Source of the DNA: Uranotaenia lowii
Taxonomy: Eukaryota; Arthropoda; Insecta; Diptera; Culicidae
Reading direction: 5' to 3'
Length of the DNA: 64,000 nucleotides
Assembly: GCF_029784155.1 (NCBI RefSeq)
Contig: NC_073693.1
Coordinates: forward strand, 313,883,304-313,947,303
A program made the translations under genes and the position numbers. The notes under the pieces are model-generated. The model was not told the origin of the DNA. It saw only the letters and a list, made by a program, of their open reading frames with translations, and made no database searches. This document shows, in pieces, positions 9,985 through 49,991 of the stretch. Within the stretch, counting starts at the first letter, position 1; each line of letters begins with the position of its first letter.

Positions 9985-11113
9985 GATGGTGTTCGTTGAT
10001 TTCGAAAAAGTATTTGACCGACTGAACCACGAACTCATCTGGGCAGCTCTTAGAAGACGAGGGGTCCCAGAGAAACTAGTCCATCTCATCGAAGCACAGT
10101 ACGAGGCATTTTCGTGCAAGGTCTTGCACGACGGTGTCTTTTCCGAACCAATCCCGGTAACTGCTGGAGTGAGACAAGGATGTATTTTGTCACCGCTGCT
10201 TTTTCTCATCATAATGGATGAGATCTTGACTGGATCGATTGACTGTAGACCAAACCGAGGATTGCCGTGGAATCCTGCAACCATGGAGCAACTGAACGAC
10301 CTTGACCTGGCAGACGATATTGTTTTGCTCGCCCAAACACAACAAGACATGCAGAGCAAACCCGACGACCTCACCGAAAGCTCCAAGGCAGCAGGTCTCA
10401 AAATCAATGTCGGAAAGACCAAGTCGATGGAAATCAATACAGAAAATCGTTCCAATTTCGTGGTAGCTGGACAACAGGTTGAGACAGTGGAGTGCTTCCA
10501 GTATCTTGGTAGCCAGATTACGCCTGATGGTGGTACCAAGAAGGACATCGAAACCAGGATCAGAAAAGCCCGATTTGCGTTTGCGAGTCTCCGAAACATC
10601 TGGCGGCCACGCCAGATCTCTCTACAAACTAAGATTCGAATCTTCAACTCGAACGTCAAATCCGTATCGCTGTACGGGTGTGAAACTTGGTGCACATATG
10701 CGGTGACGACGCGAAAACTGTAAGTTTTTGTGAATCGCTGCCTGCGGAACATCATCCGCGCTTGGAGGCCTGGCAACTGGATCTCAAACGTTGAACTTCA
10801 TCGCCGGTGTCATCAAAAGACGCTAGAAATCGAGATTCGGGAACGTAAGTGGAAATGGATTGGGCACACGCTGCGAAGAGATGAAAACGAGATTTGCAGA
10901 GAGACGCTTGACTGGAATCCAGATGGGCATCGAAAAAGAGGCAGGCCCAAAAGCTCGTGGCGGCGAAGTCTAGCCGCTGAAATCCGCACAGTTGACGAGA
11001 ACCTTGGCTGGCAGCAAGTGAAGACGCTGGCTCCGGATCGCCAGCAGTGGAGATCTTTTATCTCAGCCCTATGCGCCGGTCAACCGGCGCTGGACCCTTA
11101 GATAGATTAGATA
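9985..11113 (+). mobile_element. 5'-truncated LINE (non-LTR retrotransposon) with RT frame
   Basis: The frame 9986-11101 begins inside the reverse transcriptase at motif A (VFVDFEKVFDRL). It continues with RQGCILSPLLFLI and the catalytic LADDIVLLA, then the thumb and a C-terminal region (RKWKWIGHTLRRDENEIC, HRKRGRPKSSWRR) common to many animal LINEs. A single stop at 10721-10723 interrupts it in frame; the copy at 30318-31175 has Gln there. The end is a TAGAT-rich tail. Flanks share GCATAGAMA (near 9976 and 11114), a short target duplication. The paralogous arm near 50200-50216 has no LINE at this site, so insertion came after the duplication. The clade is not assigned. Confidence 0.85.
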
Positions 11114-11310: not shown

Positions 11311-12797
11311 TCATTTGATGTTCATGAAAAAGGTAAGCGCAGTGTAGATCATATCAATCATAGCAGTGACCGCAGGAGTGCTTATAATTGGCGTTCCTGC
11401 ACCACAAACCTGAACACCTTGTCTAGCGATTAGATGAATGAGCCTCAGAGTAGAACGAAGATCCAAATACTCTCGACGACGACCTGGAGTATATGGCAGC
11501 CTTGCCGTCAAGTTGAAAATGTTCAGAGCAATTGTTTCGTTCTGTAAAAGAGGAAAATTTAACGATATTTTATAAAAAGGTTTTTCAATTGATTGATCCT
11601 TACCACATCATTGAAGACGTCCATCGATCGACAGTACCAGTAACATTCAAATATGATTGCTGCCACGGCACAAAACACTATGACTGCCATTATCGTTATT
11701 CCCGTTAGCATGGATTCCAGTAAAAGCAACGCTGCTGTAAAACTGGCAAAATAGTAACTGATAAAAAAGGCAACCCTGATTGCTTGACCTATTTTGAAAA
11801 ATGATCTGAAAGTATGTGATTATATTTCATTAGTTTTCCAAATTTCATTTGACAATGAAATTACATCAAAACGAGCTCATGTTGGAGGGCAACCGTGTTG
11901 ACTTTAATTTTTAAATCTTTCCAAAATTCAGCTTCCATATACTGCATTTGTTCCGTTAGATCAAGACTAAGCTGAATCCTTTCGTAGCTTTTTGCAACCA
12001 ACTTGAGTTCCCCAGTCAAACCGCAAATCAGAGATGTAAACGAGCAACAGCAACAGAAATATCTAGTAAAGAAAAATAATATCGCTACAGTAGAGTATGA
12101 ATAGATCAAAAATTTTCCAGCCGATGGTCCAGAATACTCGGCGACAATATCCATCCAAAACGCCATACATTTCACATATTGGGGAATTGCCGTTATCAAC
12201 AGATTCATAGTCAACATTACAAGAATCGCTAAAAATGTACGATGAATTGATCGGTAGCTCATTTGACGAACTTCAGCATCGTAATCGGGATCCCCTGACG
12301 ATGTTGGTTTGGCAAGAAGAAACAATTTAGCCTCTTCGATAGTTTCGTGAAAATGGTTCCATACAAATCCGTTGATAGTTGATAAATTCACAACAATAAT
12401 CATCGCTGTACGAAGAATCTTTATGAGAGAAATTTCATCCTCATGTAAAATAGACACCACAAAAAGGGCAGCGATTAACCAAATAAAGCCATTCATCACT
12501 CCTACAGATGCTTTCCACCAACGTTTCCACATATTTTCCGGTTGAACTCGTATTCCTAGAAATTTAGTATAACAGCATCAAAGATTTCAAGCATCAAACT
12601 AAGAGATTTCTGAGCGCTGAGTAGCAATAAAATGAAATATAGAACAAATTAATCTAACCTCCTAGCAGAACTATGACATTCATCAACCTGAAACAATCAT
12701 CTCCGGGAACTTGGATATCAACCAAAAACTGCTTAAGTTTCTTAAAACTTCGCCTTAGCTGCAGCAGATGATGACCGAGAATCAACTCAAACATCAT
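11311..12797 (-). CDS. Odorant-receptor-like seven-transmembrane protein, 420 residues, 4 exons
   Basis: Likely an insect odorant receptor (7tm_6 family), a ligand-gated channel subunit of sensory neuron membranes. The exons I infer on the minus strand are 12797-12659, 12555-11865, 11805-11604 and 11541-11311. All introns are short (59-103 bp) with GT-AG borders, phases 1, 2 and 0, and the frame stays open to TGA. The start MMFELILGHH is chosen because the paralog at 48471 begins the same way (MMFQLIRGHH). Several hydrophobic segments are visible: GVMNGFIWLIAALFVVSI, FLAILVMLTMNLLITAI, a Cys-rich YFCCCCSFTSLICGL, and ISYYFASFTAALLLL followed by IMAVIVFCAVAAIIFECYW. The C-terminal exon (GRRREYLDLRSTLRLIH then TAMIDMIYTALTFFM) fits the conserved receptor tail. 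The frame is intact and probably functional. A related chemoreceptor subfamily is possible. Confidence 0.8.
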
Positions 12798-12910
12798 TTT
12801 GAAACGCACTTCAACGAAACACTAAGCGGTAGGGCAATTTGAACCTTGTAATTTAAACCTAACGTTTTCAAGGCTTTGTTTTGACCCAACCTGGCATCTG
12901 TTCGATACTC

Positions 12911-16319: not shown

Positions 16320-16845
16320 GTTCTTACACGCCTTGGCTGGGTTGTTTATGGGCCATGCTCAATGTCCGGCGATTACCGCAGCTCAGAAAAGCAACTTGCG
16401 TATAACTATCATGTTTGCCAATGTGATGAACTCCACTTAACAGTGAAAGAGTATTTTTCTCTGGATAGTCTTGGAATCCAATCAGATACGAATCGAATTC
16501 TATCAAAGGACGATGAGCGCGCGATGGCACTTCTGGAGAAAAACACAAATCGTCAAGGAGCCCGATACGAAACATGCTTGCTTTGGCGCTATGATAATGT
16601 TGATTTACCGAACAGTAAAACTATGGCTCTAAACCGTCATAAATGTCTCGAAAGGCGGCTTGTTCGAGAACCAGAAGTAGCCAAAGCCTTGCAGCAGAAA
16701 ATTCTCGAATACGAAACCAAAGGATATATCCGACAGCTTACCACAAAGGAAGAGAACGAACATCGTGAACGCTGTTGGTACTTGCCGATTTTTCCAGTTG
16801 TGAATCCTAATAAACCTGGAAAACTAAGGATTGTTTGGGATGCTG
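16320..16845 (+). repeat. Inverted 526-bp copy of the element's own protease-RT region
   Basis: On the plus strand this reads like the minus strand of 18216-18740. It carries VLTRLGWVVYGPCSM, then CQCDELHLTVKEYF and the N-terminal RT part up to LRIVWDA. The copies are nearly identical. One visible difference is a single C present here (GATGAACTCC) and missing in the direct copy (GATGAATCC). The segment breaks pol between RNase H and integrase. The arms are separated by about 1.37 kb, so a transcript of either strand could fold into a long hairpin. Confidence 0.93.
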
Positions 16846-18618
16846 GCTGGGACATTGGCTTTGTGGTTGCCAGATGAAGTCCGGTCCCTTAAACCATCTG
16901 CTACATGGGTTCAGGTTTGGAGTTTTCTGCCACTTTGTCCCTTCATCAGCTACGTTAAGTTTAGTTGGGACCCAGTTCCATTCAGCAACACTAGTTTTTT
17001 CCAGAATTTCCCCGACGCGGGCTCCAACATATTTTGTATACCTCCTGTGGTCGGACCTCAACCAACATAGCACGTCACGGGAATCAGACCAGAAATATCG
17101 TTTCGATATAGAAAGACGATGGGTTTCCACTATATCCTTCGCTAGTCGTGCTCCAATCACTGCTGCTTGCAGTTCTAGTCTGGGAATAGACATATATTTA
17201 AGAGGGGCTACGCGGGTTTTTGCGGTGACAAAGGCGCACTCCACAACATCTTCCTCAAAGCGCAAATAGGCAACGGCAGCGTAGCCATTTTCGCTTGCAT
17301 CCACGAACACATGAATTTGAATCAAATTTGTTGCGAGAGAGGAAGAGGTGTGCTTTCTGTAACATCTTGGAATAGATACGTTTTCGACTTGTTTTAACAC
17401 CTTCAACCAAATGCACCACTTTGCAAACTGTTGCTCATTGATTGGGTCATCCCACTGTATTCCCGAACGCCAGATTTCTTGGAGAAGGACTTTAAGAAAC
17501 ATAAGGAAGTTTGCTAGAAATCCCAGTGGATCGTATATGAGCATTAAAGTCCGTAGAACCTCACGCTTGGTAGGAACCTCTAAGCCATCGAGTAATTCCG
17601 GTTTGCATCTTCTAGGAGTCCTGAAGGTGAACGTGTCGGAATTTGTATCCCACCACATTCCTAATACTTTTTCGGTAGCCAGCTGGCTTCCAACATCTAG
17701 ATCTTTGGAAACTGCTGTGCAATCACCCATCGCTTCCATCACATTTCTTGAGTTCGATAACCACCCTCGTATCTCGAAACCTCCACTAGCATGAATCATC
17801 CGCACGTTTTTTGTCAAATCAATAGCTACTTCCTCTGTTTCAACGCTACATAACATGTCGTCCACATAAGTTCCATTCTCTATCTCATCGGCAGCTTGAG
17901 GATACTGTTCGTTAAACCGTTTCGAGTTCAAGTTTTTAATGTACTGAGCACTGCTTGGTGAACAGCTCGCTCCAAACGTCATGACTTCCATAACATACGT
18001 CATGGGAGCTTCTCCAGGACTTCCTTTGTTCCACAAGAACCGTTGACAGTGTTGATCTCTGCTGTTTATCCGAACCTGATGGAACATCTCCCGTATATCA
18101 CCTGTGATTGCGACTCGATATTCGCGGAAACGACGTAGAACGTGCGATAGCGGAGCAACTTGATCTGGACCTTTCAGCAAGAATGAGTTGAGAGACACTT
18201 TGCCTACCTTCGCTGCAGCATCCCAAACAATCCTTAGTTTTCCAGGTTTATTAGGATTCACAACTGGAAAAATCGGCAAGTACCAACAGCGTTCACGATG
18301 TTCGTTCTCTTCCTTTGTGGTAAGCTGTCGGATATATCCTTTGGTTTCGTATTCGAGAATTTTCTGCTGCAAGGCTTTGGCTACTTCTGGTTCTCGAACA
18401 AGCCGCCTTTCGAGACATTTATGACGGTTTAGAGCCATAGTTTTACTGCTCGGTAAATCAACATTATCATAGCGCCAAAGCAAGCATGTTTCGTATCGGG
18501 CTCCTTGACGATTTGTGTTTTTCTCCAGAAGTGCCATCGCGCGCTCATCGTCCTTTGATAGAATTCGATTCGTATCTGATTGGATTCCAAGACTATCCAG
18601 AGAAAAATACTCTTTCAC
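16846..18618 (-). pseudogene. BEL/Pao Pol, reverse transcriptase and RNase H part
   Basis: Copies element RNA into DNA. Readable motifs are the N-terminal fingers (ERCWYLPIFPVVNPNKPGKL), palm (RVAITGDIREMFHQVRI), the catalytic YVDDMLC at about residue 250, and a connection region (LTKNVRMIHASGGFEIRGW). RNase H motifs follow: HVFVDASENGYAAVAYL, SIPRLELQAAV, FWSDSRDVLCWL and VPTKLNVADEGTKW. The frame is separated from the protease frame by a one-base deletion near 18633, where the inverted copy has the extra base. At the other end it runs into the inverted segment and stops at 16807. Catalytic residues look intact, but the gene is broken at both ends. Confidence 0.9.
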
Positions 18619-18620
18619 TG

Positions 18621-21584
18621 TTAAGTGGATTCATCACATTGGCAAACATGATAGTTATACGCAAGTTGCTTTTCTGAGCTGCGGTAATCGCCGGACATTG
18701 AGCATGGCCCATAAACAACCCAGCCAAGGCGTGTAAGAACGGCTGTCGGCTCATTCTCTAGACCTTCTCTAGAATCTAGTGGGTACTCAAGACGAATGTT
18801 GTCCATTCCCAGTAGGATTCGTGGTCTGACATTAGCGTAGGAATCTATGGGAATATCAGAAAGGTAATGGTATCGTCGAATGAGTTCTGCACCGGAAAGC
18901 GTTTGCGAAGGTAGGGATAAACTCTGAACTGTGTGTACTTTGGCTAGGTTGAAGCGTTCGTCCGATTGCATTCCACTGATCTCGATTGAACACTTTACTG
19001 AGTCTGCTTCGAATCGTCCCTGACCAGCAGTCCAACTAATACAGAGCGGATATTTTTCGCCTTCCAAATTGAGATCTTGCCATAAGCCGTGCTCCATAAA
19101 TGTGGAGGTCGAACCACCGTCTAGAAATGCGTAGGTTGTGATTGAACCTTTTCTGCCATGCAATGTAACGCGGATGTATTTGAGTAAAACTCCTCCTAGT
19201 GAACAATTGTGCGCGTTACATGAAGGGTGATGTGACATACTACTAGTATTATTAGGACTAATAGGATTATTAGAACTAATAGGAATATTAGGGATGTTAG
19301 GAGTATTAGCACTATTCTGTTCTTTATGCTTCCTATCGTCATGTAGAAGCCAATGATGCAAATATCTACACCCATTTGTGTTACATGGAACTCTTCTACT
19401 ACATGTCTTGAAATGTTTGGTTAGACATTTACGGCAGATATTTTGCTCGTTCACTACAGACCAACGTTGATTTTTTGACATATCGAGAAAGGCTCTGCAG
19501 TTTTCGATGGTTGTACATTCTCCACCACAGGCTGGACATGAATTCTGATACGACCTTGAGGATGGCTGTTCCGAATGTAAATGAAGGAAAGCCTCCTCTT
19601 TCCTATGTTTGGCGGAAGGTTTATTCCATGATTGTGGTCTTGTTACCCTGCTGAAAGCATCCACCTTTTTGCTTAGCCACATGTTAAAGTCCATGAGAGA
19701 CGACGCGCCAGTTTTCTGTAGATGAGTTGCCCATTTCATTTTCAAGTTTATAGGAAGGCTTTCGACTAACTCCTGTAGCAAGGTAGCGTTATACAGACGT
19801 TCATCCAATCGACAGGCTAGAATTGTGGCACAGAGATTTTGAACGGCAATACCAAAGTCAATTATACTCTCCAGCTTATCTGCCTTTGGTGGTGGCATCG
19901 ACTTGACTCTCTTCATCATCGTGTCAACTATCGTTTCCGGATTTCCAAAGAGGGTGCTCAGACGATTCATAATAACCGGAACGTTGTCTGGATGAAGAAG
20001 AAGGCTTTTGACGGTACTAAGAGCTCTGTCTTGTAAACTTCTTTCTAAACGATCCAAAAGCTCATCATTCCGGAAGTCGCACATCCTCGCTGTGCGTTCA
20101 TACGCCGCAATGAACCTAGGCCATTCCTCTGGATCTCCACCAAACTTAGGCAAGTCTTTTACTGTTTGTCTAGCAGCAAGATGCTCTGCACTCAGTCTCC
20201 TTTCGATAGAACAGACTTCATCAGCGATGATTTGCTGTTGAGGGAAAAGCGATAGGCGTCTTGGGGTCGATGCTGATACAGGGGGAAGGTTGGAATCGCT
20301 CTGGGTTGCGTAGGGATTTGAATAATTCACTAAGTCGGGCTGTGAGGTACCTATCACACTTCTTGGAGCTTGCTGCTGTGAAACTGCTACCCTCGGCTGC
20401 TGAGTGGTATACACTGGTGGATATTGTTGCACCGGAAATGAACTGGGCGGACATGCTGAAGGGTAAGATTGGTGGTGGTTTTGCGGAAGATTAACTGAGC
20501 CTTGAAATGCTCCACTTGGCAATGATGGCACGCGCATGGAAGTGGACGAGGGGTTTGAAAGCGGAAAAGCGAACTGAGGATCAGCCGAGCCGGAAGATTG
20601 CAAACCATAAAGGGGAGGAATAGAGGGAATCGTCGCTGAAGACTGTATGCTACAAGTTGGCATGATATTGGATGTAGCTGCAGCTAATGCCGCCCTTGGA
20701 GCCGAACTCTTTGAAGAATCTGATGCAACCTGAATCCTCACCGATTTCGCTACTCTTCCAGGATACTCGGGAAGTGTTGTTTCATTCCCGGGCATTGCTG
20801 TAGCATTCTCGATGTTATGGGTTTTATTCAGCCAATTTTCGACCCTTTGAACACTTTCACTTGTTTTTGAATCGGTGTCAAGACCTGCTGACAACTGCTC
20901 TTCCAACTGTAGGCGCTCATCTAATTGTTTTCTTTCTAGGGCTTGTCTGGCTTCCAGAGCTTTGAGTTTCTGTTCGCGAGTTTTTGTTGAATGCTGTGAT
21001 CCCTTAGAGGAAGATATTCCGCTACCCTTAGAACCCTGAACTCTAGAAGCAACCAATGTTTCGTATCGCGTTGACATCATCGGTTGTTTTGGAATCGCCC
21101 CAACGCTTCGACGGCCAGAATTAATTAGTTCACCAGAATGGCTTACGATGGATTCATCTAGAAGTAGAAACTGCTCATGCATCCTTTGTGACTGCTCCTT
21201 CAACTGCCGAAGTCTCTCCATCTCAAGCTGCTGTTGTTTCTGCTGCTGCTCGAGTTGTTCTTGCTCCTTAGCCTGCTGCTCACGTTGTTGCTCACGCTGC
21301 CACTGTTCTTTCTGCTTCTTGACTCGGTCGATCTCTTCTCTCAGAGCAACTCTCTCCTTCTCCAGCGATTCTCTAACGCATTTGTTGCAGCTCCAATCAG
21401 CATTTTCAATGCCTTCATCCACATTGACACATTCATAATGGAACCAGGTGTCACAGGAATCGCATTGGACCATCCGGCTCGTATCGTTGCGGCTACATGT
21501 CCCACAACTTCTCCCCTCACCATGAGAAACAGTTTCATTGTTTTCACCAGTATTATTTGCACTCGCTACACTTTTATTCGACAT
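18621..21584 (-). CDS. BEL/Pao Gag-protease with N-terminal PHD finger, 987 residues
   Basis: Starts at an ATG 25 bp inside the 5' LTR. Residues about 26-72 form a C4HC3 PHD-type zinc finger (CGTCSRNDTSRMVQCDSCD, then WFHYECV and WSCNKC). PHD fingers usually bind histone tails. Next is a long Glu/Gln/Lys-rich coiled-coil-like stretch, then a Ser/Pro/Gln-rich linker. A DUF1759 Gag region follows from about residue 470 (VKDLPKFGGDPEEWPRFI), Cys/His knuckles from about 680 (CPACGGECTTIENC, CRKCLTKHFKTC), and a retropepsin-like site near 820 (AFLDGGSTSTFM). The frame ends at CQCDEST through the one-base deletion; without it the frame would continue into RT. Gag itself looks intact. Confidence 0.9.
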   Translation of the reverse strand: MSNKSVASANNTGENNETVSHGEGRSCGTCSRNDTSRMVQCDSCDTWFHYECVNVDEGIENADWSCNKCVRESLEKERVALREEIDRVKKQKEQWQREQQREQQAKEQEQLEQQQKQQQLEMERLRQLKEQSQRMHEQFLLLDESIVSHSGELINSGRRSVGAIPKQPMMSTRYETLVASRVQGSKGSGISSSKGSQHSTKTREQKLKALEARQALERKQLDERLQLEEQLSAGLDTDSKTSESVQRVENWLNKTHNIENATAMPGNETTLPEYPGRVAKSVRIQVASDSSKSSAPRAALAAATSNIMPTCSIQSSATIPSIPPLYGLQSSGSADPQFAFPLSNPSSTSMRVPSLPSGAFQGSVNLPQNHHQSYPSACPPSSFPVQQYPPVYTTQQPRVAVSQQQAPRSVIGTSQPDLVNYSNPYATQSDSNLPPVSASTPRRLSLFPQQQIIADEVCSIERRLSAEHLAARQTVKDLPKFGGDPEEWPRFIAAYERTARMCDFRNDELLDRLERSLQDRALSTVKSLLLHPDNVPVIMNRLSTLFGNPETIVDTMMKRVKSMPPPKADKLESIIDFGIAVQNLCATILACRLDERLYNATLLQELVESLPINLKMKWATHLQKTGASSLMDFNMWLSKKVDAFSRVTRPQSWNKPSAKHRKEEAFLHLHSEQPSSRSYQNSCPACGGECTTIENCRAFLDMSKNQRWSVVNEQNICRKCLTKHFKTCSRRVPCNTNGCRYLHHWLLHDDRKHKEQNSANTPNIPNIPISSNNPISPNNTSSMSHHPSCNAHNCSLGGVLLKYIRVTLHGRKGSITTYAFLDGGSTSTFMEHGLWQDLNLEGEKYPLCISWTAGQGRFEADSVKCSIEISGMQSDERFNLAKVHTVQSLSLPSQTLSGAELIRRYHYLSDIPIDSYANVRPRILLGMDNIRLEYPLDSREGLENEPTAVLTRLGWVVYGPCSMSGDYRSSEKQLAYNYHVCQCDEST

Positions 21585-30317: not shown

Positions 30318-31175
30318 TACCTACCTACCTAAGAGTCCGGCGCCGATTCACCGACGCATAGAGCTGAGATAAAAGATCTCCACTGCTGGCGATCCGGAGC
30401 CAGCGTCTTCACTTGCTGCCAGCCAAGGTTCTCGTCAACTGTGCGGATTTCAGCGGCTAGACTTCGCCGCTACGAGCTTTTGGGCCTGCCTCTTCTTCGA
30501 TGCCCATCAGGATTCCAGTCAAGCGCCTCTCCGCAAATCTCGTTTTCATCTCTTCGCAGCGTGTGCCCAATCCATCTCCACTTACGTTCCCGAATCTCGA
30601 TTTCTAGCGCCTTTTGATGACACCGGCGATGAAGTTCAACGTTTGAGATCCAGTTGCCAGGCCACCAAACGCGGATGATGTTCCAGAGGCAGCGATTCAC
30701 AAAAACTTGCAGTTTTCGCGTCGTCACCGCATATGTGCACCAAGTTTCACACCCGTACAGCAATACGGATTTGACGTTTGAGTTGAAGATTCGGATCTTA
30801 GTTCGTAGAGAGATCTGGCGTGAGCGCCAGATGTTTCGGAGACTCGCAAATCGGGCTTTTCTGATCCGGGTTTCGACGTCCTTCTTGGTACCACCATCAG
30901 GCGTAATCTGGCTAACAAGATACTGGAAGCACTCCACTGGCTCAACCTGTTGTCCAGCTACCACGAAATTGGAACGATTTTCTGTGTTGATTTCTATCGA
31001 CTAGGTCTTTCCGACATTGATTTTGAGACCTGCTGCCTTGGAGCTTTCGGTGAGGTCTTCGAGTTTGCTCTGCATGTCTTGTTGTGTTTGGGCGAGCAAA
31101 ACAATATCGTCTGCCAGGTCAAGGTCGTTCCGTTGCTCAATTGCTGAAGGATTCCACGGCAATCCTCGATCAGGC
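30318..31175 (-). mobile_element. 5'-truncated LINE, same family as 9985-11113
   Basis: The minus strand matches the LINE at 9985-11113 closely. It shares CFQYL-SQITPDGGTKKD, IRIFNSNVKSV, RKWRWIGHTLRRDENEIC and HRRRGRPKSSWRR, ending at a TAGG-repeat tail (plus strand 30318-30331). It has Gln where the other copy has its stop. The similarity upstream ends within IEDCRGIL near 31175. It is truncated and not autonomous. Confidence 0.85.
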
Positions 31176-33578: not shown

Positions 33579-33920
33579 CCCTCATCGGCATTAGAGTGTA
33601 ATTTTGACAATACATTGCAAGTTTGAAGGCTGGTAACTTTTTTCAGAAGCTTCAAAAAACAAAAATTTCTTCGGGGACCCTAAATCAGTTCAAAAGTATT
33701 TTAATATTGCATCTTTACTTTTTTTATGACCGAACCCTGGAAGCCTGGACAAAAAAAAACTCCCTTTTCCGGCTTAGAGTGTCAATTTGACACTCCAAAA
33801 GTAAAATCTATCTAAGTCGTTTTAATTATAATTTATTTCATATATATCTTATATCATTAGAAACATTGTAATGTCAGTAAAATATGTTCAAACATTTTTG
33901 TCTGCCACTTCGATTCTCTA

Positions 33921-35495
33921 CCTCCCCGTGGTGCTAGCTGGGGTGCGAGCAACCTTAGCGGAGATTGGGTACCCAACCCCGGTGGATGCTTTAGTCACAT
34001 GCAGACTGAGTTAGGGGGCTTCGTACGCGTCTGTTCTCCATGTCAGGGGCGGCGTGCGGAGTGCAACAACGTCCTGGTGGTGTTCGGGACCCAAAACAGC
34101 AACATCCCGGCGGTCCTCCTGCGAGATAGTGGGGTTAGCTGCGGGTCTTGCGAGCCCGTGACTACAAAAAACATAAGTAACGAACAACGAACAACAAATT
34201 TGGATGGAAATCGGCAAAGACCCTCGCGACGAAAAGGGAAACTTGGAAACTTGGAACATGGAACTCTAAATTTTGTGGGCAGTACCCACGTGCTCTCCAA
34301 CGAATCGAAGAGCCGCAAATTCGACATCGTAGCGCTGCAGGAGGTATGCTGGAAGAGCTCCACGGTACGAACGTACCCAGGTGATCGTGCCATCTACCAG
34401 AGCTGCGCCAACACACGAGCTTGGAACAGCTTTTGTAGTGATGGGAAAGATGCAAAAGCGCGTGATCGGCTGGTGGTTGATCAACTCACGAATGTGCCGG
34501 TTGAGAATCAAGGGCCGGTTCTTCAACATCAGCATCATCAACGTGCACAGCCCTTATTTCGGAAGTACAGGTGACGACAAAGACGAATTTTACGCGCTGG
34601 ATCGTGAATACGACTGTTGCCCAAAACATGATATCAAGATCGTCATCGGGAATTTTAATGCTCAGGTCGGCCAGGAGGAGGAATTCAAACCGACAATTGG
34701 AAGGTTCAGGGCGCACCAGCTGACCAACGAAAACGGCCTCAGACTTATTGATTTCGCCGCCTCCAAACAAATGGCCGAACGTAGTACCCTTTTCCAGCAC
34801 CGCCTCCCACACAAGTACACCAGGAGATCACCGTACCAAACGCAATCACCTGGAGGAGGAGGAGCTCGAGGAGCTGGAGCAGCTCCATCGTTCCCAAGAA
34901 ACACGAAAGTTCTATCAGAAACTCAACGCATCCCGCAAAGGCTTCGTGCCGCAAGCCGAAATGTGCCGGGATAAGGACGGGGGTATCCTGACGGACAATC
35001 GTGAGGTGATCAAAAGGTGGAAGCAGCATTTCGACGAACACCTGAACGTCGCACATGCAGGAGATCAAGACGGTGGGGGAAGGTACATCGTCGGCGTAGC
35101 CAACGACGTAGAGGAGCCACTCCCAACGATGAGTGAAGTTAAGGAAGCCATTCGCCAGCTGAATAGAAACAAGTCGGCTGGGAAGGATGGCATCGCAGCT
35201 GAACTCATCAAAATGGGCCCGAACAAGTTGGCCGATTGCCTACACCGGTTGATAATCCGGATCTGGGACATAGAACAGCTACCGGAAGAGTGGAAGGAGG
35301 GGGTAATATGCCCCATCTACAAGAAGGGCGACAAATTGGACTGTGAGAACTACCGATCGATCACTGTCCTCAATGCCGCCTACAAAGTGTTGTCCCGAAT
35401 CCTACTCCGCCGCCTAACGCCACGAGCAAACACATTCGTGGGAAGTCATCAGGCCAGCTTCATGGAGGGACGGTCTACGACGGACCAGATATTCA
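33921..35495 (+). pseudogene. LINE fragment: 5' region, endonuclease and N-terminal RT
   Basis: Begins CCTCCCCGTGGTGCTAGC, presumably the 5' UTR. An apurinic-type endonuclease follows in two frames (FDIVALQEVCWKSSTV; FNISIINVHSPYFGS; IVIGNFNAQVG, where the usual GDFN has become GNFN). Then comes an RT N-terminus in a third frame (RNKSAGKDGIAAELIK, VICPIYKKGDKLDCENYRS, GSHQASFMEGRSTTDQIF). The sequence stops there, before the catalytic palm. Loss of the 3' end is unusual for a LINE and suggests a later deletion. It lies inside the piggyBac-like element. Confidence 0.85.
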
Positions 35496-35789
35496 TTAGA
35501 CCGGTTGTTCCACCGCCAGGTTGTTCCCGGATTTTCATTGCTTTTACTTGCTTTGGGCCAATCAAAAGTATATTCATTGGAAAGCAAATTTAATCTACAT
35601 TCTGAGGTGCACGCTGTGAAATTTCACAAAAATATGAAAATTATAAACGTAAAATCATTCCTGAATTTCTAGAACCACAAGCAGCACGTCCAGAAAAACG
35701 TGTTTGTTTGCTCTCCAAGTAGGTACGGTGTGGGTGGTGATTTGGGCAGAGAGCCAAGCCGAGAGCCGAAATAATGAGGCATGTCGTGA

Positions 35790-35930
35790 CCAGTGATGGC
35801 AACCTTCCAGATTTTTTCTGATTCTTCCAGACTTTTTGGACTTTTGCCAGACATTTTTTCAGGATTCCAGACTTCCAGACTTTTGACATTTCTTCCAGAC
35901 AATTTCAGACTTTTGGCTTAGGACATAAAT
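35790..35930. repeat. Degenerate CCAGACTTTT short repeat
   Basis: About eight variants of TTCCAGAC with T-rich spacers occur within 140 bp on the plus strand. It is pyrimidine-rich and imperfect. Class unknown. Confidence 0.5.
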
Positions 35931-36808
35931 TGTTCTACGAAACTATGAAAATTCGAAATGGCCAAATGGCCATGGAAATATGGCAGAAAATGATTAAAAT
36001 TTATGAATTATGAATGCAGTGATTGAAAGCTATGTACAGTATCTCCAATTTTCAGTTTCAATTTTCGAAAAGCTGTCAAATGAAAGAAAAATGCTTTTGA
36101 CAGTAAATTCATCTCAGTGAAGTTCATTCGTTCATTCATTCATTTTGTTGCATTAAAAATCTTAAGACAACAAAATGTTAGAATTAGAATAAATTTTGTA
36201 GTCATATTTTTTCAAAAACTCTACCATCGCTCAAACAGTTTTTACTAGCAATCGAATGAAAAGTAGGTTTTTCAGACCACTTTTTTGCACTTTTTGTGAC
36301 CCTTTCATTGAAAAAATTTAAAAAAAAATTTCCTGGCTTCATGATGTAGACATTAACTTCCGCTCTCATATGCATAAGACAAATATTTTTTTTGAACGAG
36401 TAATGTATGAACTACAGCAGTTTTCCTGAGGCATGATTTTTTTTCTTCCATACTGAATAAAGAGAAAACTAGTAGCTTTAGCTATATACAATGTTCCAAA
36501 CATATTTTACTGACATTACAAGGTTTCTATTGATATAAGTTTTACATGAAATTAATTATAATTCAAACGAATTAGATAGATTTTACTTTTGGAGTGTCAA
36601 ATTGACACTCTATGTCTGAAAAGGGAGTTTTTTTGTACAGGCTTCCAGGGATCGTCAATAAAAAAAAGTAAAGATACAATATTCAAGAACCTTTGAAATC
36701 ATTTGGGGTCCCCGAAGAAATTTTTGTTTTTTGAAGCTTCTATAAAAAAGTTACAAGCCTTCAAACTTGCAGATATGTAGTGTCAAAATGACACTCTAAT
36801 GCGGATGT

Positions 36809-37283: not shown

Positions 37284-38003
37284 AATAAAAACATCAGAGT
37301 TTCATCAACTACTTTGAAAATATTGATAGAAAAATTTCATACAAACATTCTTAAATGTTTTTGACTTCTGACTCTGTTGAATCATTTTATGTTTTAGAAC
37401 AAAGTAGGAAGTTTCTTATCAGTTTTCAACATTTTTGGTTTTAAATTTTTGAAAGCCCGGCACCGCTTATAACGTTTTTGATAAACTTGGCCTGTTTATA
37501 GATAAAACCTTTTTGCATCTTGTGACCAAATTCCCAGTTTTTCAATGGAATTACAGTGATTATTGTGAAGCAATCTTAATTATTTGTAGCTGAATTATTT
37601 TTTCAGTCATTTTGCACTTGAACAGTCGTTGAATGTTGTGAAGCGTTAGTTCGATAGCTGAACTGAAATTTGTTTCATGAAAAAATAACATCTGAGAGAG
37701 AGATGGCAGCTTGCCGATGCTTTTTTAAACGCCACTCTAGCTTTAATTCAAAAAGTTACATCGGCAAGTTTAAGCAATAATCAAATCTTACATAAACCTT
37801 GTAGTAAGGTTTATTGAGCCTAGCATTTGAAAACGATTGAACAAAATATGAGTATTTGTACGCACACATATTTGGAAAAAAAAATCAGTTTGCTGTGTCA
37901 ATTTTATTACAGTGCCAAAGAATGATGAAAAATTTACCGGAAATACCGTCCCAATAGCCGGTATTTCCGGTATTGGAAAATGGACGGTTTTACCGGTTTC
38001 GGT
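37284..38003. other. Non-coding stretch
   Basis: No gene seen. An inverted pair CTTGCCGATG/CATCGGCAAG lies at about 37711-37771. A CCGGTA-rich patch at about 37936-38005 precedes the mariner relic. Confidence 0.4.
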
Positions 38004-38171
38004 ATGGACATCGCTGTTTGGAGTATGTTGGAGGCCGAAGTCTGCTCTAAGAAACATGAAGGTGTGGAGGTCCTGAAGCGACATCTCGTTGCAGCCTGAG
38101 ATAAAATACCACAAGAACACATGCGAACCTCATACGATGCGTTCCTCGACCGTCTGCGGCGGGTGGTTTAA
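38004..38171 (+). pseudogene. Tc1/mariner-type transposase, C-terminal relic
   Basis: Reads IAVWSMLEAEVCSKKHEGV, then VEVLKRHLVAA, stop (TGA at 38097-38099), DKIPQEHMRTSYDAFLDRL and a final stop. This pattern of a W-x-x-L-E block, a short helix, then a D-F-x-x-R-L block is the end of mariner-type transposases, where the stop position is normally Trp. Only about 55 codons remain and no TIR was found. Confidence 0.65.
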
Positions 38172-38579
38172 ACTCAAGGGCGAAAAAGTTGAACTTAAAC
38201 AACAAACTAAACGGTACTTAAAGAAATCCATTCTCGAAAATAGATATTTAAAAATCACTTTCCGATACCCAGTTTCTCGGGACCAGGGATTGAAATGCTC
38301 TTGCTCAAGCGGCTGAGCATCAAAGCTCTTGAAGCTCGAGAGCGAAGAAAGCTGGAGCCAATTCTAGCCCACCAATAAATGCTCAAATTAAGCTCATACC
38401 TCTTCTGGCTCTAGGAGACAAGGTTTTGCATTTTGCTTTGAGTTTGTTAGCTCAAGGAGCCGAAATTTCTTGAGCTTGCTGGCTCAGCAAAATTGTAACA
38501 CTTGAGCCAAATGATGTGTATTGACTTTGCTATTGTGGTGCTGTGTGAGCCAACGGCTTTATATGCACCAGAAACTGTG

Positions 38580-41500
38580 GAAGGGCTTGTTGGGATTAAT
38601 AAAATCAATGTTAGAGATTTCTTGTAACTGGTAAAAGTTACCAGCACTAGTAACTATGAAATAGTGAGATTTACATTTTTTCAGGGAAAAACGCCAAATG
38701 AAAGGGCTTATTGTGAGGAATATTAAAATCAATGTTGGAGAGTTCTAGTAACTAGTAAAAGTTACCAGCACTAGTAACTATGAAATAGTAAAATTTACAA
38801 TTTTTCGGGAAAAACGCCAAATGAAAGGGCTTATTGTGAGGAATATTAAAAACAATGTTAGATAGTTCTAGTAACTAGTAAAAGTTACCAGCACTAGTAA
38901 CTATGAAATAGTAAAATTTACATTTTTTCGGGAAAAACGCTAAATGAAAGGGCTTTTTGCGAAGGATATTAAAATTAATGTGAGAGAGTTCTAGTTACTA
39001 CTTAAAGTTACCAGCACTAGTAACTATGAAATAGTAAAATTTACATTTTTTCGGGAAAAACGCTAAATGAAAGGGCTTTTTGCGAGGATTATTAAAATCA
39101 ATGTTAGAGAGTTCTAGTTACTAGTTAAAGTTACCAGCACTAGTAACTATGAAATAGTAAAATTTACATTTTTTCGGGAAAAACGCCAAATGAAAGGGCT
39201 TTGCGAGGATTATTAAAATCAATGTTAGAGAGTTCTAGTAACTAGTAAAAGTTACCAGCACTAGTAACTATGTAATAGTGAGATTTACAAATTTTTTGGA
39301 AAAACGCCAAATGAAAGGGCTTTTTGCGTGGATTATTAAAATCAATGTTAAAGATTTCTTGTAACTGGTAAAAGTTACCAGCACTAGTAACTATGAAATA
39401 GTAAAATTTACATTTTTTCGGGAAAAAACGCCAAATGAAAGGGCTTTTTGCGTGGATTATTAAAATCAATGTTAGAGAGTTCTAGTTACTACTAAAAGTT
39501 ACCAGCACTAGTAACTATGAAATAGTAAAATTTACAATTTTTCGGGAAAAACGCCAAATGAAAGGGCTTTTTGCGAGGATTATTAAAAACAATGTTAAGA
39601 GGTTTTGTAACTAGTAAAAGTTACCAGCACTAGTAACTATGAAATAGTAAAATTTACATTTTTTCGGGAAAAACGCCAAATGAAAGGGCTTTTTGCGAGG
39701 ATTATTAAAATTAATGTGAGAGAGTTCTAGTTACTACTTAAAGTTACCAGCACTAGTAACTATGAAATAGTAAAATTTACATTTTTTCGGGAAAAACGCT
39801 AAATGAAAGGGCTTTTTGCGAGGATTATTAAAATCAATGTTAGAGAGTTCTAGTTACTAGTTAAAGTTACCAGCACTAGTAACTATGAAATAGTAAAATT
39901 TACATTTTTTCGGGAAAAACGCCAAATGAAAGGGCTTTGCGAGGATTATTAAAATCAATGTTAGAGAGTTCTAGTAACTAGTAAAAGTTACCAGCACTAG
40001 TAACTATGAAATAGTGAGATTTACAAATTTTTTGGAAAAAACGCCAAATGAAAGGGCTTTTTGCGTGGATTATTAAAATCAATGTTAAAGATTTCTTGTA
40101 ACTGGTAAAAGTTACCAGCACTAGTAACTATGAAATAGTAAAATTTAAATTTTTTCGGGAAAAACGCCAAATGAAAGGGCTTTTTGCGAGGATTATTAAA
40201 ATCAATGTTAGAGAGTTCTAGTTACTAGTAAAAGTTACCAGCACTAGTAACTATGAAATAGTAAAATTTACAATTTTTCGGGAAAAACGCCAAATGAAAG
40301 GGCTTTTTGCGAGGATTATTAAAATCAATGTTAGAGAGTTCTAGTTACTAGTTAAAGTTACCAGCACTAGTAACTATGAAATAGTAAAATTTACAATTTT
40401 TCGGGAAAAACGCCAAATGAAAGGGCTTTTTGCGAGGATTATTAAAAACAATGTTAGAGAGTTCTAGTAACTAGTAAAAGTTACCAGCACTAGTAACTAT
40501 GAAATAGTAAAATTTACAATTTTTCGGGAAAAACGCCAAATGAAAGGGCTTTGCGAGGATTATTAAAATCAATGTTAGAGAGTTCTAGTAACTAGTAAAA
40601 GTTACCAGCACTAGTAACTATGAAAAAGTGAGATTTACAATTTTTTTGGAAAAACGCCAAATGAAAGGGCTTTTTGCGTGGATTATTAAAATCAATGTTA
40701 GAGAGTTCTAGTTACTAGTAAAAGTTACCAGCACTAGTAACTATGAAATAGTAAAATTTACATTTTTTCGGGAAAAACGCCAAATGAAAGGGCTTTTTGC
40801 GAGGATTATTAAAATAAATGTTAGAGAGTTCTAGTTACTAGTTAAAGTTACCAGCACTAGTAACTATGAAATAGTAAAATTTACATTTTTTCGGAAAAAA
40901 AACGCCAAATGAAAGGGCTTTTTGCGAGGATTATTAAAATCAATGTAAGAGAGTTCTAGTTACTAGTTAAAGTTACCAGCACTAGTAACTATGAAATAGT
41001 AAAATTTACAATTTTTCGGGAAAAACGCCAAATGAAAGGGCTTTTTGCGAGGATTATTAAAATCAATGTGAGAGAGTTCTAGTTACTAGTTAAAGTTACC
41101 AGCACTAGTAACTATGAAATAGTAAAATTTACATTTTTTCGGGAAAAACGCTAAATGAAAGGGCTTTTTGCGAGGATTATTAAAATCAATGTTAGAGAGT
41201 TCTAGTTACTAGTTAAAGTTACCAGCACTAGTAACTATGAAATAGTAAAATTTACATTTTTTCGGAAAAAACGCCAAATGAAAGGGCTTTTTGCGAGGAT
41301 TATTAAAATCAATGTTAGAGAGTTTTAGTAACTAGTAAAAGTTACCAGCACTAGTAACTATGAAATAGTGAGATTTACAAATTTTCGGGAAAAACGCCAA
41401 ATGAAAGGGCTTTTTGCGTGGATTATTAAAATCAATGTTAAAGAGTTCTAGTTACTAGAAAAAGTTACTAGTTCAAGTAACTATGAAATAGTAAAATTTC

Positions 41501-41690
41501 GAAATTTTCGGGAAAGCGCCAAATGAAAGGGCTTGTTGCGAGGATTAATAAAATCAATGTTAGAAATTACTAGTTACTGGTAAAAGTTACCAGCACTAGA
41601 AACTATGAAATAGTAAAATTTTGAAATTATCGGAAAAAATTTCGAAATTAGAGGGCTTGTTGCGAGGATTATTAAAATCAAAGTTTATGT
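38580..41690 (+). repeat. Tandem array, about 25 units of 122 bp, forward orientation
   Basis: Each unit carries GTTACCAGCACTAGTAACTA, GAAATAGTAAAATTTACA, TCGGGAAAAACGCC and AAATGAAAGGGCT in that order. Units are very similar, with the last two more diverged. Variants recur in order: the run of units at about 38945-39690 repeats at about 39690-40430 (period near 740 bp, six units), an incipient higher-order repeat. Confidence 0.93.
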
Positions 41691-41699
41691 GTTAAAAAT

Positions 41700-43455
41700 G
41701 TGTAAGTTTTCTTACTTCATAGTTACTAGTGCTGGTAACTTTAACTAGTTACTAAAACTCTCTAACATTGATTTTTATAATCCTCACAAAAAGCCCTTTC
41801 ATTTGGCGTTTTTCCCGAAAACTTGTTAATTTTACTATTTCATAGTTACTAGTGCTGGTAACTTTTACTAGTTACTAGAACTCTCTAACATTGTTTTTAA
41901 TAATCCTCGCAAAAAGCCCTTTCATTTGGCGTTTTTCCCGAAAAATTGTAAATTTTACTATTTCATAGTTACTAGTGCTGGTAACTTTAACTAGTAACTA
42001 GAACTCTCTAACATTGATTTTAATAATCCACGCAAAAAGCACTTTCATTTGGCGTTTTTTCCGAAAAATTGTAAATTTTACTATTTCATAGTTACTAGTG
42101 CTGGTAACTTTTACTAGTTACTAGAACTCTCCAACTTTGATTTTAATATTCCTCACAATAAGCCCTTTCATTTGGCGTTTTTCCCTGAAAATATGTAAAT
42201 CTCACTATCTCATAGTTACTAGTGCTGGTAACTTTTACTAGTTACTAGAACTCTCTTACATTGATTTTAATATTCCTCACAATAAGCCCTTTCATTTGGC
42301 GTTTTTCCCGAAAAATTGTAAATTTTACTATTTCATAGTTACTAGTGCTGGTAACTTTTACTAGTTACTAGAACTCTCCAACATTGATTTTAATAATCCT
42401 CACAATAAGCCCTTTCATTTGGCGTTTTTCCCGAAAAATTGTAAATTTTACTATTTCATAGTTACTAGTGCTGGTAACTTTAACTAGTAACTAGAACTCT
42501 CTAACATTGATTTTAATAATCCACGCAAAAAGCACTTTCATTTGGCGTTTTTTCCGAAAAATTGTAAATTTTACTATTTCATAGTTACTAGTGCTGGTAA
42601 CTTTTACTAGTTACTAGAACTCTCCAACTTTGATTTTAATATTCCTCACAATAAGCCCTTTCGTTTGGCGTTTTTCCCGAAAAATTGTAAATTTTACTAT
42701 TTCATAGTTACTAGTGCTGGTAACTTTTACTAGTTACTAGAACTCTCTTACATTGATTTTAATAATCCTCGCAAAAAGCCCTTTCATTTAGCGTTTTTTT
42801 CCGAAAAAATGTAAATTTTACTATTTCATAGTTACTAGTGCTGGTAACTTTAACTAGTAACTAGAACTCTCTAACATTGATTTTAATAATCCTCGCAAAA
42901 AGCCCTTTCATTTGGCGTTTTTCCCGAAAAATTGTAAATTTTACTATTTCATAGTTACTAGTGCTGGTAACTTTTAATAGTTACTAGAACTCTCCAACAT
43001 TGATTTTAATAATCCTCACAATAAGCCCTTTCATTTGGCGTTTTTCCCGAAAAATTGTAAATTTTACTATTTCATAGTTACTAGTGCTGGTAACTTTTAC
43101 TAGTTACTAGAACTCTCTAACATTGATTTTAATAATCCTCGCAAAACGCCCTTTCATTTGGCGTTTTTCCCGAAAAATTGTAAATTTTACTATTTCATAG
43201 TTACTAGTGCTGGTAACTTTAAGTAGTAACTAGAACTCTCTTACATTGATTTTAATATTCCTCACAATAAGCCCTTTCATTTGGCGTTTTTCCCGAAAAA
43301 TTGTAAATTTTACTATTTCATAGTTACTAGTGCTGGTAACTTTTTCTAGTTACTAGAACTCTCTAACATTGATTTTAATATTCCTCACAAAAAGCTCTTT
43401 CATTTGGCGTTTTTCCCGAAAATTTGTGAATTTTACTATTTCATAGTTACTAGTT
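41700..43455 (-). repeat. Tandem array, about 14 units of 122 bp, reverse orientation
   Basis: This is the same unit read on the other strand (CATAGTTACTAGTGCTGGTA, then CCCTTTCATTTGGCG). Orientation switches at about 41690-41710. Within this arm a four-unit block seems duplicated: the rare variant CCACGCAAAAAGCACTTTC occurs at about 42029 and 42521. Confidence 0.93.
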
Positions 43456-43735
43456 ACAAAAAAGCAGGCGTTGGCTGGAACAGCAGCAGTGAAAACAAGC
43501 TCAACGAATTTGAATCGGTTGAGCCAACAAGCTCAAGCTCCTCTGGAGGCATGAGCTAACGGGCTCACGAGGCAAAAAAAGAGCTAAGGTTTCTTCCAAA
43601 TAAGAGCTTAGCAATGCGAAGCTCCGGAGACAAAAACGATAGGAGCTTCGTCGATTGCTTTGTAAGCGGAGCTATGGAAATCAAGAGCTATGAAGCTCGC
43701 TCAAAAGAGCTTAATTTTCAATCCCTGCTCGGGAC

Positions 43736-48349: not shown

Positions 48350-48470
48350 TTAAAGCAGGAAGTGTGTGAGTATCGAACAGATGCCAGGTCGGGTCAAAAC
48401 AAAGTAAAGGTTTAAATTACAGCGTTCATACTGCCCTACCCCTTAGTGTGTCGCTGAAGTGCGTTTCAAA

Positions 48471-49991
48471 ATGATGTTTCAGTTGATTCGTGGTCATCAT
48501 CTGCAGCAGCTAAGGCGAAGTTTTAAGAAACTTAAGCAGTTTTTTGTTGATGTCCAAGTCCCCGGAAATGATTGTTTCAGGTTGTTGAATGTCATAGTTC
48601 TGCTAGGAGGTTGGTTTAATTTGTTTGGTATTTCAATTTAATGCTATTCAGAGTTGAGAAATCTCTTAGTTTGATAATTAAAATCTTTGATGATGGAAAA
48701 ATTAATTTCCAGGAATACGAGTTCAACCGGAAAAAAGATGGAAACGTTGGTGGAAAACATCTGTAGGATTGATGATTGGCTATTTATGGCTGATTGTTGC
48801 CATTTTGGTGGTCTCTATTTTCGACGAGGATGAGCTTTCGCTCATTAAAATTCTACGAACAGCGATGTTTATTGTTGTTAATTTGTCAACTCTCAACGGA
48901 TTTGTATGGAACCATTTTCACGACACTATCGAAGAGGCTAAATTATTTCTTCTTGCCAAACCAACATCGTCCGGGGATTTGGATTACGATGCTGAAGTTC
49001 GTCAAATGACCTACCGGTCAATTCACCGAACGTTTTTGACGATCCTTGTTATTTTGACTATGAATCTGTTGATAACGACTATTCCCCATTATGTGGATTG
49101 TTTGGCGTTTTGGGTTGATATCGTCGCCGAGTATTCTGTACCCTTGGCTGGAAAAGTTATGATTTTTTTATACTCTCTTGTAACGATAATCTTATTCTTT
49201 ACCAGATATTTCTGTTGCTGTTGCTCGTTTACATCTCTGATTTGCGGTTTGACTGGGGAACTTAAGTTGGTTGCAAAAGGCTACGAAAGGATTCAGCTTA
49301 GACTTGATCTAATGGAACGAGTGCAGAACATGTCAGGTTCAAATCGACCGTCGAGTCAGTACGTTGAAGCTGGATTTTGGAGAGACTTAAAAATTGAGGT
49401 CAACACAGTTGCCCACCAACATGAGATAGTTTTGATGTAGTTTGAGTGTCAAATGAAATTTTAAAAACTTATTTAATATAATCAAACTCTTTCAGAACAT
49501 TTTTCAAAATATGTCAAGCAATGAGGGTTACCTTCTCCATCAGTTACTATTTTGCCAGTTTTACAGCTGCGTTGCTTTTACTGGAAACCATGATTTCAGA
49601 AATATCGATAATGGCAGTCATAGTGCTTTGTGCCGTGGCAGCAATCATATTTGAATGTTACTGGTATTGTCGATCGATTGACGTCTTCAATGATGCGGTA
49701 AGGTCCAATATATTTGAAAACATTGAAATCAAAAAGTCGTTAAATATTCCTTTTTAACAGAACGAAACAATTGCTCTGAACGTTTTCAGCTTAACAGCAA
49801 GGCTACCATATACTCCAGGGCGTCGTCGAGAGTATTTGGATCTCCGTTCGACTCTGAGGCTTATTCATCTAATCGCTAGACAAGGTGTTCAAGTTTGTGG
49901 TGCAGGAACACCGGCTATCAGCGCTCCTGCTGTCACCGCTATGATTGATATGATCTACACTGCATTAACTTTTTTCATGAACATCAAATGA
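48471..49991 (+). CDS. Odorant-receptor-like seven-transmembrane protein, 431 residues, 4 exons
   Basis: Paralog of the gene at 11311-12797, with the same expected role as a membrane chemoreceptor. The exons I infer are 48471-48609, 48713-49436, 49496-49697 and 49761-49991, with GT-AG introns and phases 1, 2 and 0, and an intact frame to TGA. The start is MMFQLIRGHH. Hydrophobic segments parallel the paralog (GLMIGYLWLIVAILVVSI; FLTILVILTMNLLITTI; YFCCCCSFTSLICGL; MAVIVLCAVAAIIFECYW). It has 11 extra residues in the intracellular-type loop after the Cys-rich segment (MSGSNRPSSQYVEAG). The first three exons differ at scattered residues; the last exon is almost the same. Conserved sequence upstream (GTGAGTATCGAACAGATGCC) may be promoter or 5' UTR. 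Probably functional. Confidence 0.8.

What the first reader, a model, noticed from the sequence alone, without database searches (positions are those of the whole stretch)
38284..43727. hAT-bounded element whose body is a head-to-head inverted satellite
A complete hAT signature (CAGGGATTGAAA ends, 8-bp duplication CTCGGGAC) encloses 4.9 kb of 122-bp satellite: about 25 units one way, then about 14 the other way. A transposon able to carry or seed satellite DNA would be a way to disperse satellites. The inverted layout could also form a kilobase-scale hairpin and feed small-RNA pathways.
Basis: partly seen in the sequence, partly recalled or inferred. Interest (0 to 1): 0.85.

Follow-up and report, generated by a model that had tools for sequence, protein, structure and literature searches.

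The report
Transposon filled with mirrored satellite repeats
A probable hAT-type jumping element has a body made almost entirely of a 123-base repeat arranged as two opposite-facing arrays; it may be one way in which repetitive DNA spreads, but other copies in the genome could not be checked here.

Summary
At 38284-43727 a perfect 12-bp terminal inverted repeat (CAGGGATTGAAA) is bordered by a perfect 8-bp duplication (CTCGGGAC, fitting the Ac-type pattern nTnnnnAn). None of 1500 Markov-simulated flank pairs reproduced both. Inside lie two opposed arrays of a 123-bp (not 122-bp) unit: 25.2 copies at 38593-41685 and 14.3 at 41694-43454. The outer ends are packed with GAGC (31 in 563 bp; 1 in the 4862-bp array). 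No ORF of 90 aa or more lies inside.

Best reading: a non-autonomous, foldback-like hAT element whose arms are satellite arrays. The arms share one monomer pool, keep no mirror register (P=0.92) and meet at diverged left-arm units, which argues against an assembly palindrome or a recent inverted duplication. A 25-bp block with a dyad is invariant in 36 interior units of 38 cut out.

Foldback transposons that seed satellites are known (Tetris), but Tetris was suggested to be Mutator, and the parts of a review table that I saw name no hAT. So: a new variant of a known kind. Not tested: other copies (genome search did not complete), mobility, small RNAs, organism. Satellite dispersal remains inference.

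The parts
38276..38283 (.). left 8-bp target-site duplication CTCGGGAC
   Evidence: fits nTnnnnAn (pattern from passages of PMC10368747, and PMC8961557)
38284..38295 (+). left terminal inverted repeat CAGGGATTGAAA
38284..38577 (+). left end, GAGC-rich (16 GAGC on both strands in 38284-38573)
   Evidence: array similarity starts at about 38578
38593..41685 (+). left satellite arm, 123-bp unit, 25.2 copies
   Evidence: partial first unit from about 38578
38758..38782 (+). example of the invariant 25-bp block AAAGTTACCAGCACTAGTAACTATG (dyad GTTAC-8-GTAAC)
   Evidence: invariant in 36 of the 36 units kept (2 of 38 dropped); coordinates read off
41469..41685 (+). diverged inner units of the left arm: one complete unit with 17 differences from consensus (41469-41590), then a partial unit at 81/95 identity (41591-41685)
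41686..41693 (.). eight bases between the two opposed arrays
41694..43454 (-). right satellite arm, same unit inverted, 14.3 copies; also a 493-bp (4-unit) period
43455..43727 (-). right end, GAGC-rich (15 GAGC on both strands)
43716..43727 (-). right terminal inverted repeat
43728..43735 (.). right 8-bp target-site duplication CTCGGGAC

Best explanation
It is one insertion of a non-autonomous hAT-type transposon with foldback architecture. Short TIRs and GAGC-rich ends would be bound by a hAT transposase supplied from elsewhere (inferred), and cut-and-paste insertion made the 8-bp duplication (shown by its footprint). The interior consists of two opposed arrays of one 123-bp unit, which have grown, rearranged and probably exchanged sequence by unequal crossing-over or conversion (inferred from local multi-unit duplications and the shared monomer pool). 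If transcribed through, it would give a hairpin about 1.7 kb long at about 93% identity between arms, a natural siRNA substrate (inferred). If this family moves with its arrays, it disperses satellite DNA (inferred, untested).
For: Perfect 12-bp TIR and 8-bp duplication, both together in 0 of 1500 simulations. The duplication fits nTnnnnAn, reported for Hermes and hobo (passages). The ends carry 31 GAGC against a mean of 3.6 and a maximum of 10 in 1000 mononucleotide shuffles; clustered short subterminal repeats are described for Hermes ends. No ORF of 90 aa or more within the element. The arms share one monomer pool: mean identity 0.924 within left, 0.934 within right, 0.924 between. Each arm has its own local duplications: 306 bp identical at offset 736 in the left, 256 bp identical at offset 493 in the right. 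Best arm-to-arm alignment: 93.1% over 1722 columns. The RNA fold is dominated by cross-arm pairs.
Against: Only one copy was seen. No hAT transposase was found, but only 10 of the 54 listed ORFs of 90 aa or more in the window were scanned. Element length, 5444 bp, is just above the 2.5-5 kb that PMC8961557 gives for hAT elements. The two ends share the TIR and scattered motifs, with one 42-column stretch at 79%. The arrays carry almost none of the end motif (1 GAGC in 4862 bp), so they do not look like amplified transposase-binding sites. Nearest-neighbour units lean weakly towards the same arm (23.2 of 36 against 18.9 expected, P=0.089), so free exchange between arms is not proven. [quoted passage not shown]
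Confidence: 0.62

Rival explanations
1. An ordinary short hAT MITE inserted here, and the satellite arose or expanded in place afterwards; the transposon never carried an array, so it is no vehicle.
For: Only one locus is known, and both arms show local segmental duplication, i.e. growth in place.
Against: In-place expansion alone does not explain two opposed arrays unless an inverted core pre-existed (inference). The arms fill the element up to the GAGC-rich ends on both sides.
Confidence: 0.22
2. It is a foldback Mutator-like element (as suggested for Tetris, and as described for Muta1 of Aedes aegypti), which also makes 8-10 bp duplications.
For: Foldback form with tandem repeats inside, and an 8-bp duplication within the MULE range (passages).
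Against: The strict TIR is 12 bp; the paper seen gives MULE TIRs as typically over 100 bp, though 2 of its 14 families are under 60 bp. The duplication fits nTnnnnAn; the CAGGG start as a hAT sign is recalled.
Confidence: 0.1
3. The inverted junction is an assembly artefact joining two arrays.
For: Arrays are hard to assemble. The same window holds a perfect 414-nt inverted repeat of unknown cause. No reads could be examined.
Against: A false palindrome should be mirror-identical at the junction. Here the best alignment of the arms leaves about 184 bases at the inner end of the left arm unpaired, and the first 123 columns beyond that match at 0.84, the lowest of 14 blocks (the others 0.89-0.98). 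No mirror register exists (mirror diagonal 0.921, best 0.933, P=0.92). The arms differ in copy number and in the lag of highest identity. TIR and duplication match across the whole structure.
Confidence: 0.05
4. The ends are a chance pairing, and the array is an ordinary local satellite.
For: A 12-bp inverted match alone is not rare: 146 of 1500 simulations.
Against: TIR plus duplication in 0 of 1500; both ends share the GAGC enrichment.
Confidence: 0.01

Closest known systems
Tetris and its TIR-220 satellite, Drosophila virilis (PMC4079207, passages read)
   Same: Non-coding foldback transposon whose long inverted arms hold AT-rich tandem repeats (about 220 bp) that expand into satellite arrays; 8-10 bp duplications.
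   Different: Suggested by its authors to be Mutator superfamily, with long TIRs that include the repeats and a flanking domain sharing 37 bp with the repeat. Here the strict TIR is 12 bp, the ends look hAT, the unit shares little with the ends (5 shared 8-mers left, 0 right), and there are about 25 and 14 units.
Galileo, a foldback-like element of the P superfamily (mentioned in passages of PMC4079207)
   Same: Foldback-like element with tandem repeats within its arms.
   Different: Its repeats contain extra transposase-binding sites according to that passage; here the array lacks the end motif (1 GAGC in 4862 bp). Superfamily differs; the duplication length differs too (recalled).
Muta1 and other MULEs of Aedes aegypti (PMC5225508, passages read)
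   Same: Foldback form (Muta1), 8-9 bp duplications, non-autonomous relatives with variable interiors.
   Different: Short 9-15 bp subterminal tandem repeats in long TIRs, not a 123-bp satellite body; Mutator transposase.
hAT elements of the Ac type: Hermes, hobo (passages of PMC10368747 and PMC8961557)
   Same: 8-bp duplication nTnnnnAn, short TIR (hobo 12 bp); for Hermes, short subterminal repeats clustered in both ends.
   Different: They encode transposase, and no satellite body is described in the passages; the subterminal motif of Hermes differs.
Transposon-borne satellites: Xmix/Xstir and miDNA4 in Xenopus, DINEs in Drosophila (review PMC9659126, passages); Crassostrea Helentrons (PMC7492417, listing and abstract start only)
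   Same: A mobile element carrying a satellite array.
   Different: The review gives Tc1-Mariner for miDNA4, Helitron for DINEs and no superfamily for Xmix; I saw no opposed arrays described in those passages.

Membership tests
hAT superfamily | 8-bp target-site duplication | tested here: met
   CTCGGGAC on both sides
hAT superfamily | short TIR (10-25 bp according to PMC8961557) | tested here: met
   12 bp perfect
hAT superfamily | element size 2.5-5 kb (PMC8961557) | tested here: inconclusive
   5444 bp, slightly above; the array accounts for most of it
hAT superfamily (Ac family) | duplication pattern nTnnnnAn | tested here: met
   cTcgggAc by inspection; one site only; 1 in 16 random 8-mers with equal base use would fit
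hAT superfamily | hAT transposase in the element or in an autonomous relative with the same ends | not tested
   No ORF of 90 aa or more inside; relatives could not be searched because the genome search gave no answer
hAT superfamily | several copies with the same ends at different sites | not tested
   The genome search unanswered in 19 tries; no second copy of the ends in the window
Foldback-type element | long inverted arms built of tandem repeats | tested here: met
Mutator superfamily (foldback MULE) | 8-10 bp duplication and long TIR (typically over 100 bp) | tested here: inconclusive
   8-bp duplication fits; strict TIR only 12 bp; 2 of 14 Aedes MULE families have TIRs under 60 bp
Culicine tapiR satellite | contains the tapiR1 and tapiR2 sequences | tested here: not met
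   best ungapped match 18/30 and 18/29, the same as in 5 shuffles each (18)

The most novel reading that the evidence does not exclude
A hAT lineage that carries its own inverted satellite as a working part: a mobile, self-complementary array with a selectively conserved 25-bp dyad box (a possible host or transposase protein site) that disperses satellite monomers and feeds hairpin-derived siRNAs, so that satellite spread and silencing ride on one element.
Probability: 0.18. Interest if true: 0.7.

Novelty: new variant of a known kind. Interest (0 to 1): 0.5.

Why it matters
How satellite families jump between chromosomes is an open question. A cut-and-paste element whose body is the satellite would make it directly testable: compare array length and orientation among copies that share the same ends. 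The opposed arms also give a defined hairpin source with which to ask whether satellites enter the siRNA or the piRNA pathway.

Tried and rejected
tapiR satellite: tested against the tapiR1 and tapiR2 sequences printed in PMC9781653; no better than shuffles.

Other copies: the 30-nt conserved core of the unit gave 0 stretches in viral contigs and 0 in genome contigs. These are viral and prokaryotic collections, and both answers warn that records of the window's own genome may be left out, so this says little. The end pattern with a variable gap gave 25 viral contigs; I read none of them and take them, untested, as chance hits to 18 fixed bases.

Organism: BEL/Pao-type domains point to an animal; my impression of a mosquito is recall. 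A predicted membrane protein (48769-49440) found nothing in the protein database (E up to 0.001), the PDB or Pfam. Rfam gave 0 matches at gathering thresholds in the window.

Array as amplified transposase-binding sites (Galileo-type idea): not supported, because the array lacks the end motif. Unit derived from the ends: no clear sign (5 shared 8-mers in the left end against 1.3 expected, 0 in the right against 1.1). Recent inverted duplication of one arm: rejected, no preferred register (best diagonal 0.933, P=0.92; reversed-order control up to 0.935). Strong folding of one unit as RNA: z -1.40 only, 18 of 200 shuffles fold as well.

Papers: the listings (2 of 2; 15 of 25; 5 of 5; 1 of 1; 20 of 120; 10 of 23; 3 of 3; 6 of 6) showed, by title and abstract start, no hAT foldback element with satellite arms. 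Several listed papers holding both words, for example PMC8504770, were not opened. One search for the end and unit letters found 96 papers, 30 listed; none of those 30 holds the unit strings, and none looked transposon-related by title.
Full report
What is there. The window holds, at 38284-43727, a 5444-bp segment bounded by a perfect 12-bp inverted repeat, with an identical 8-bp sequence directly outside each end. Each 12-mer occurs once in the window and the 8-mer twice. In 1500 Markov simulations of the 1-kb flanks a 12-bp inverted match alone arose in 146, a 5-bp TIR with an 8-bp duplication in 56, and the full 12+8 combination in 0. In the whole window 76 pairs with a TIR of at least 12 and an 8-bp duplication were counted, of which only the first six were printed, in order of position. 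Three of those six are array-internal; besides the element, the other two (16731-18330 and 33654-36732) have palindromic 8-mers, so there the 8-mer and TIR are simply one longer inverted repeat. CTCGGGAC is not palindromic.

The body. Tandem Repeats Finder gives a 123-bp unit, 25.2 copies forward (38593-41685) and 14.3 copies reversed (41694-43454). I cut out 38 complete units (24 left, 14 right); partial edge units were left out. Mean pairwise identity is 0.924 within the left arm (276 pairs), 0.934 within the right (91) and 0.924 between arms (336), and each class contains identical pairs. Exact matches reach 306 bp within the left arm (offset 736, six units), 256 bp within the right (offset 493, four units) and 202 bp between the arms in inverted orientation. 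Mean identity is highest at lag 6 in the left arm (0.945) and lag 4 in the right (0.943); these peaks were not tested against a null. So the arms draw on the same units but have rearranged separately.

The junction. At the centre the left arm ends in the most diverged complete unit (17 differences from consensus; the other 37 units have 1-12) and a partial unit at 81/95 identity; the right arm starts with a stretch at 37/42. The right arm's innermost complete unit is not unusual (6 differences), so the decay is one-sided. The best alignment of the two arms covers 1722 columns at 0.931; it leaves about 184 bases at the inner end of the left arm unpaired, and the first 123-column block beyond that is the poorest of 14 (0.84; others 0.89-0.98). 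No diagonal of the left-by-right unit matrix stands out (mirror diagonal 0.921, best 0.933, P=0.92 against shuffled unit order; reversed-order control up to 0.935). A chimeric read or a false palindrome would match best at the junction, so I judge an artefact unlikely, though no reads could be examined.

The ends. The left (about 294 bp) and right (273 bp) ends share the TIR, one 42-column stretch at 79%, and little else in order, but both are packed with GAGC: 31 on both strands in 563 bp against a mean of 3.6 and a maximum of 10 in 1000 mononucleotide shuffles. The array has 1 in 4862 bp. Passages of PMC10368747 describe short subterminal repeats bound by transposase BED domains for Hermes, asymmetry of its two ends, and an 8-bp target preference nTnnnnAn; PMC8961557 uses the same pattern to place hobo in the Ac family. 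CTCGGGAC fits. That GAGC is a transposase site here is inference.

The unit. Dropping units A24 and B01 (2 of 38), 41 of 123 positions vary among 36 units, and a 25-bp run AAAGTTACCAGCACTAGTAACTATG never varies (permutation P=0.0002). It holds a dyad GTTAC-8-GTAAC. The dropped unit A24 breaks the block, the partial unit at 41591 has one change in it, and B01 starts inside the unit at the edge of the array. The units are not independent, so the P value overstates the case; still, the block is a candidate protein site.

What it does. The best-supported reading is a non-autonomous hAT insertion with foldback architecture whose arms are satellite arrays. Shown: end structure, duplication, opposed arrays, absence of ORFs of 90 aa or more, hairpin potential (1568 of 1608 predicted pairs cross the junction in a 3518-nt fold of 39937-43454; no shuffled control was run for this fold). 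Inferred: transposase in trans, growth by unequal exchange, exchange between arms, siRNA production, dispersal of satellite. [quoted passage not shown] Both are analogies, since the organism of this window is not identified.

What is known. Tetris of Drosophila virilis is the nearest precedent: foldback, AT-rich tandem repeats in its arms, origin of a satellite; its authors suggest the Mutator superfamily (passages of PMC4079207). The shown parts of a review's Table 1 of transposon-to-satellite cases include Helitron, Tc1-Mariner, foldback, Pearl, CACTA and others; the term hAT occurs twice in that paper, both times in reference titles in the passages shown (PMC9659126). The paper searches that combined hAT with foldback or satellite terms listed no such element (titles and abstract starts, plus passages of some). 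That is not proof of absence: most subscription papers and the repeat databases were not searched.

Limits. The decisive test, a search of the window's own genome for further copies, was requested 19 times and never answered (calls listed in Tried and rejected). Only 10 of the 54 listed ORFs of the window were scanned for protein families. Membership in hAT therefore rests on end structure alone.

Noticed in passing
16432-16845 and 18216-18629: A perfect 414-nt inverted repeat (100%) overlapping both ends of a BEL/Pao-type reading frame (16807-18618, -): a recent partial inverted duplication or a misassembly.
   Followed up: no
11936-12860 and 48408-49332: Two inverted paralogous stretches (925 nt, 88%) overlapping similar hydrophobic 223-aa reading frames; no Pfam hit for either, and no PDB or protein-database hit for the one tried.
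   Followed up: partly
10580-11105 and 30325-30850: Inverted LINE-like copies, 526 nt, 95%.
   Followed up: no
33654-36732: Pair of palindromic GAAGCTTC sites with an A-rich inverted 12-mer; possibly another element or chance.
   Followed up: no
38593-43454: A 25-bp block with a dyad, invariant in the 36 interior units examined, comparable in kind to protein-binding boxes of other satellites (comparison recalled).
   Followed up: partly
37930-38010: Stretch with repeated CCGGTATT-like words left of the element, possibly the end of another transposon (by eye).
   Followed up: no
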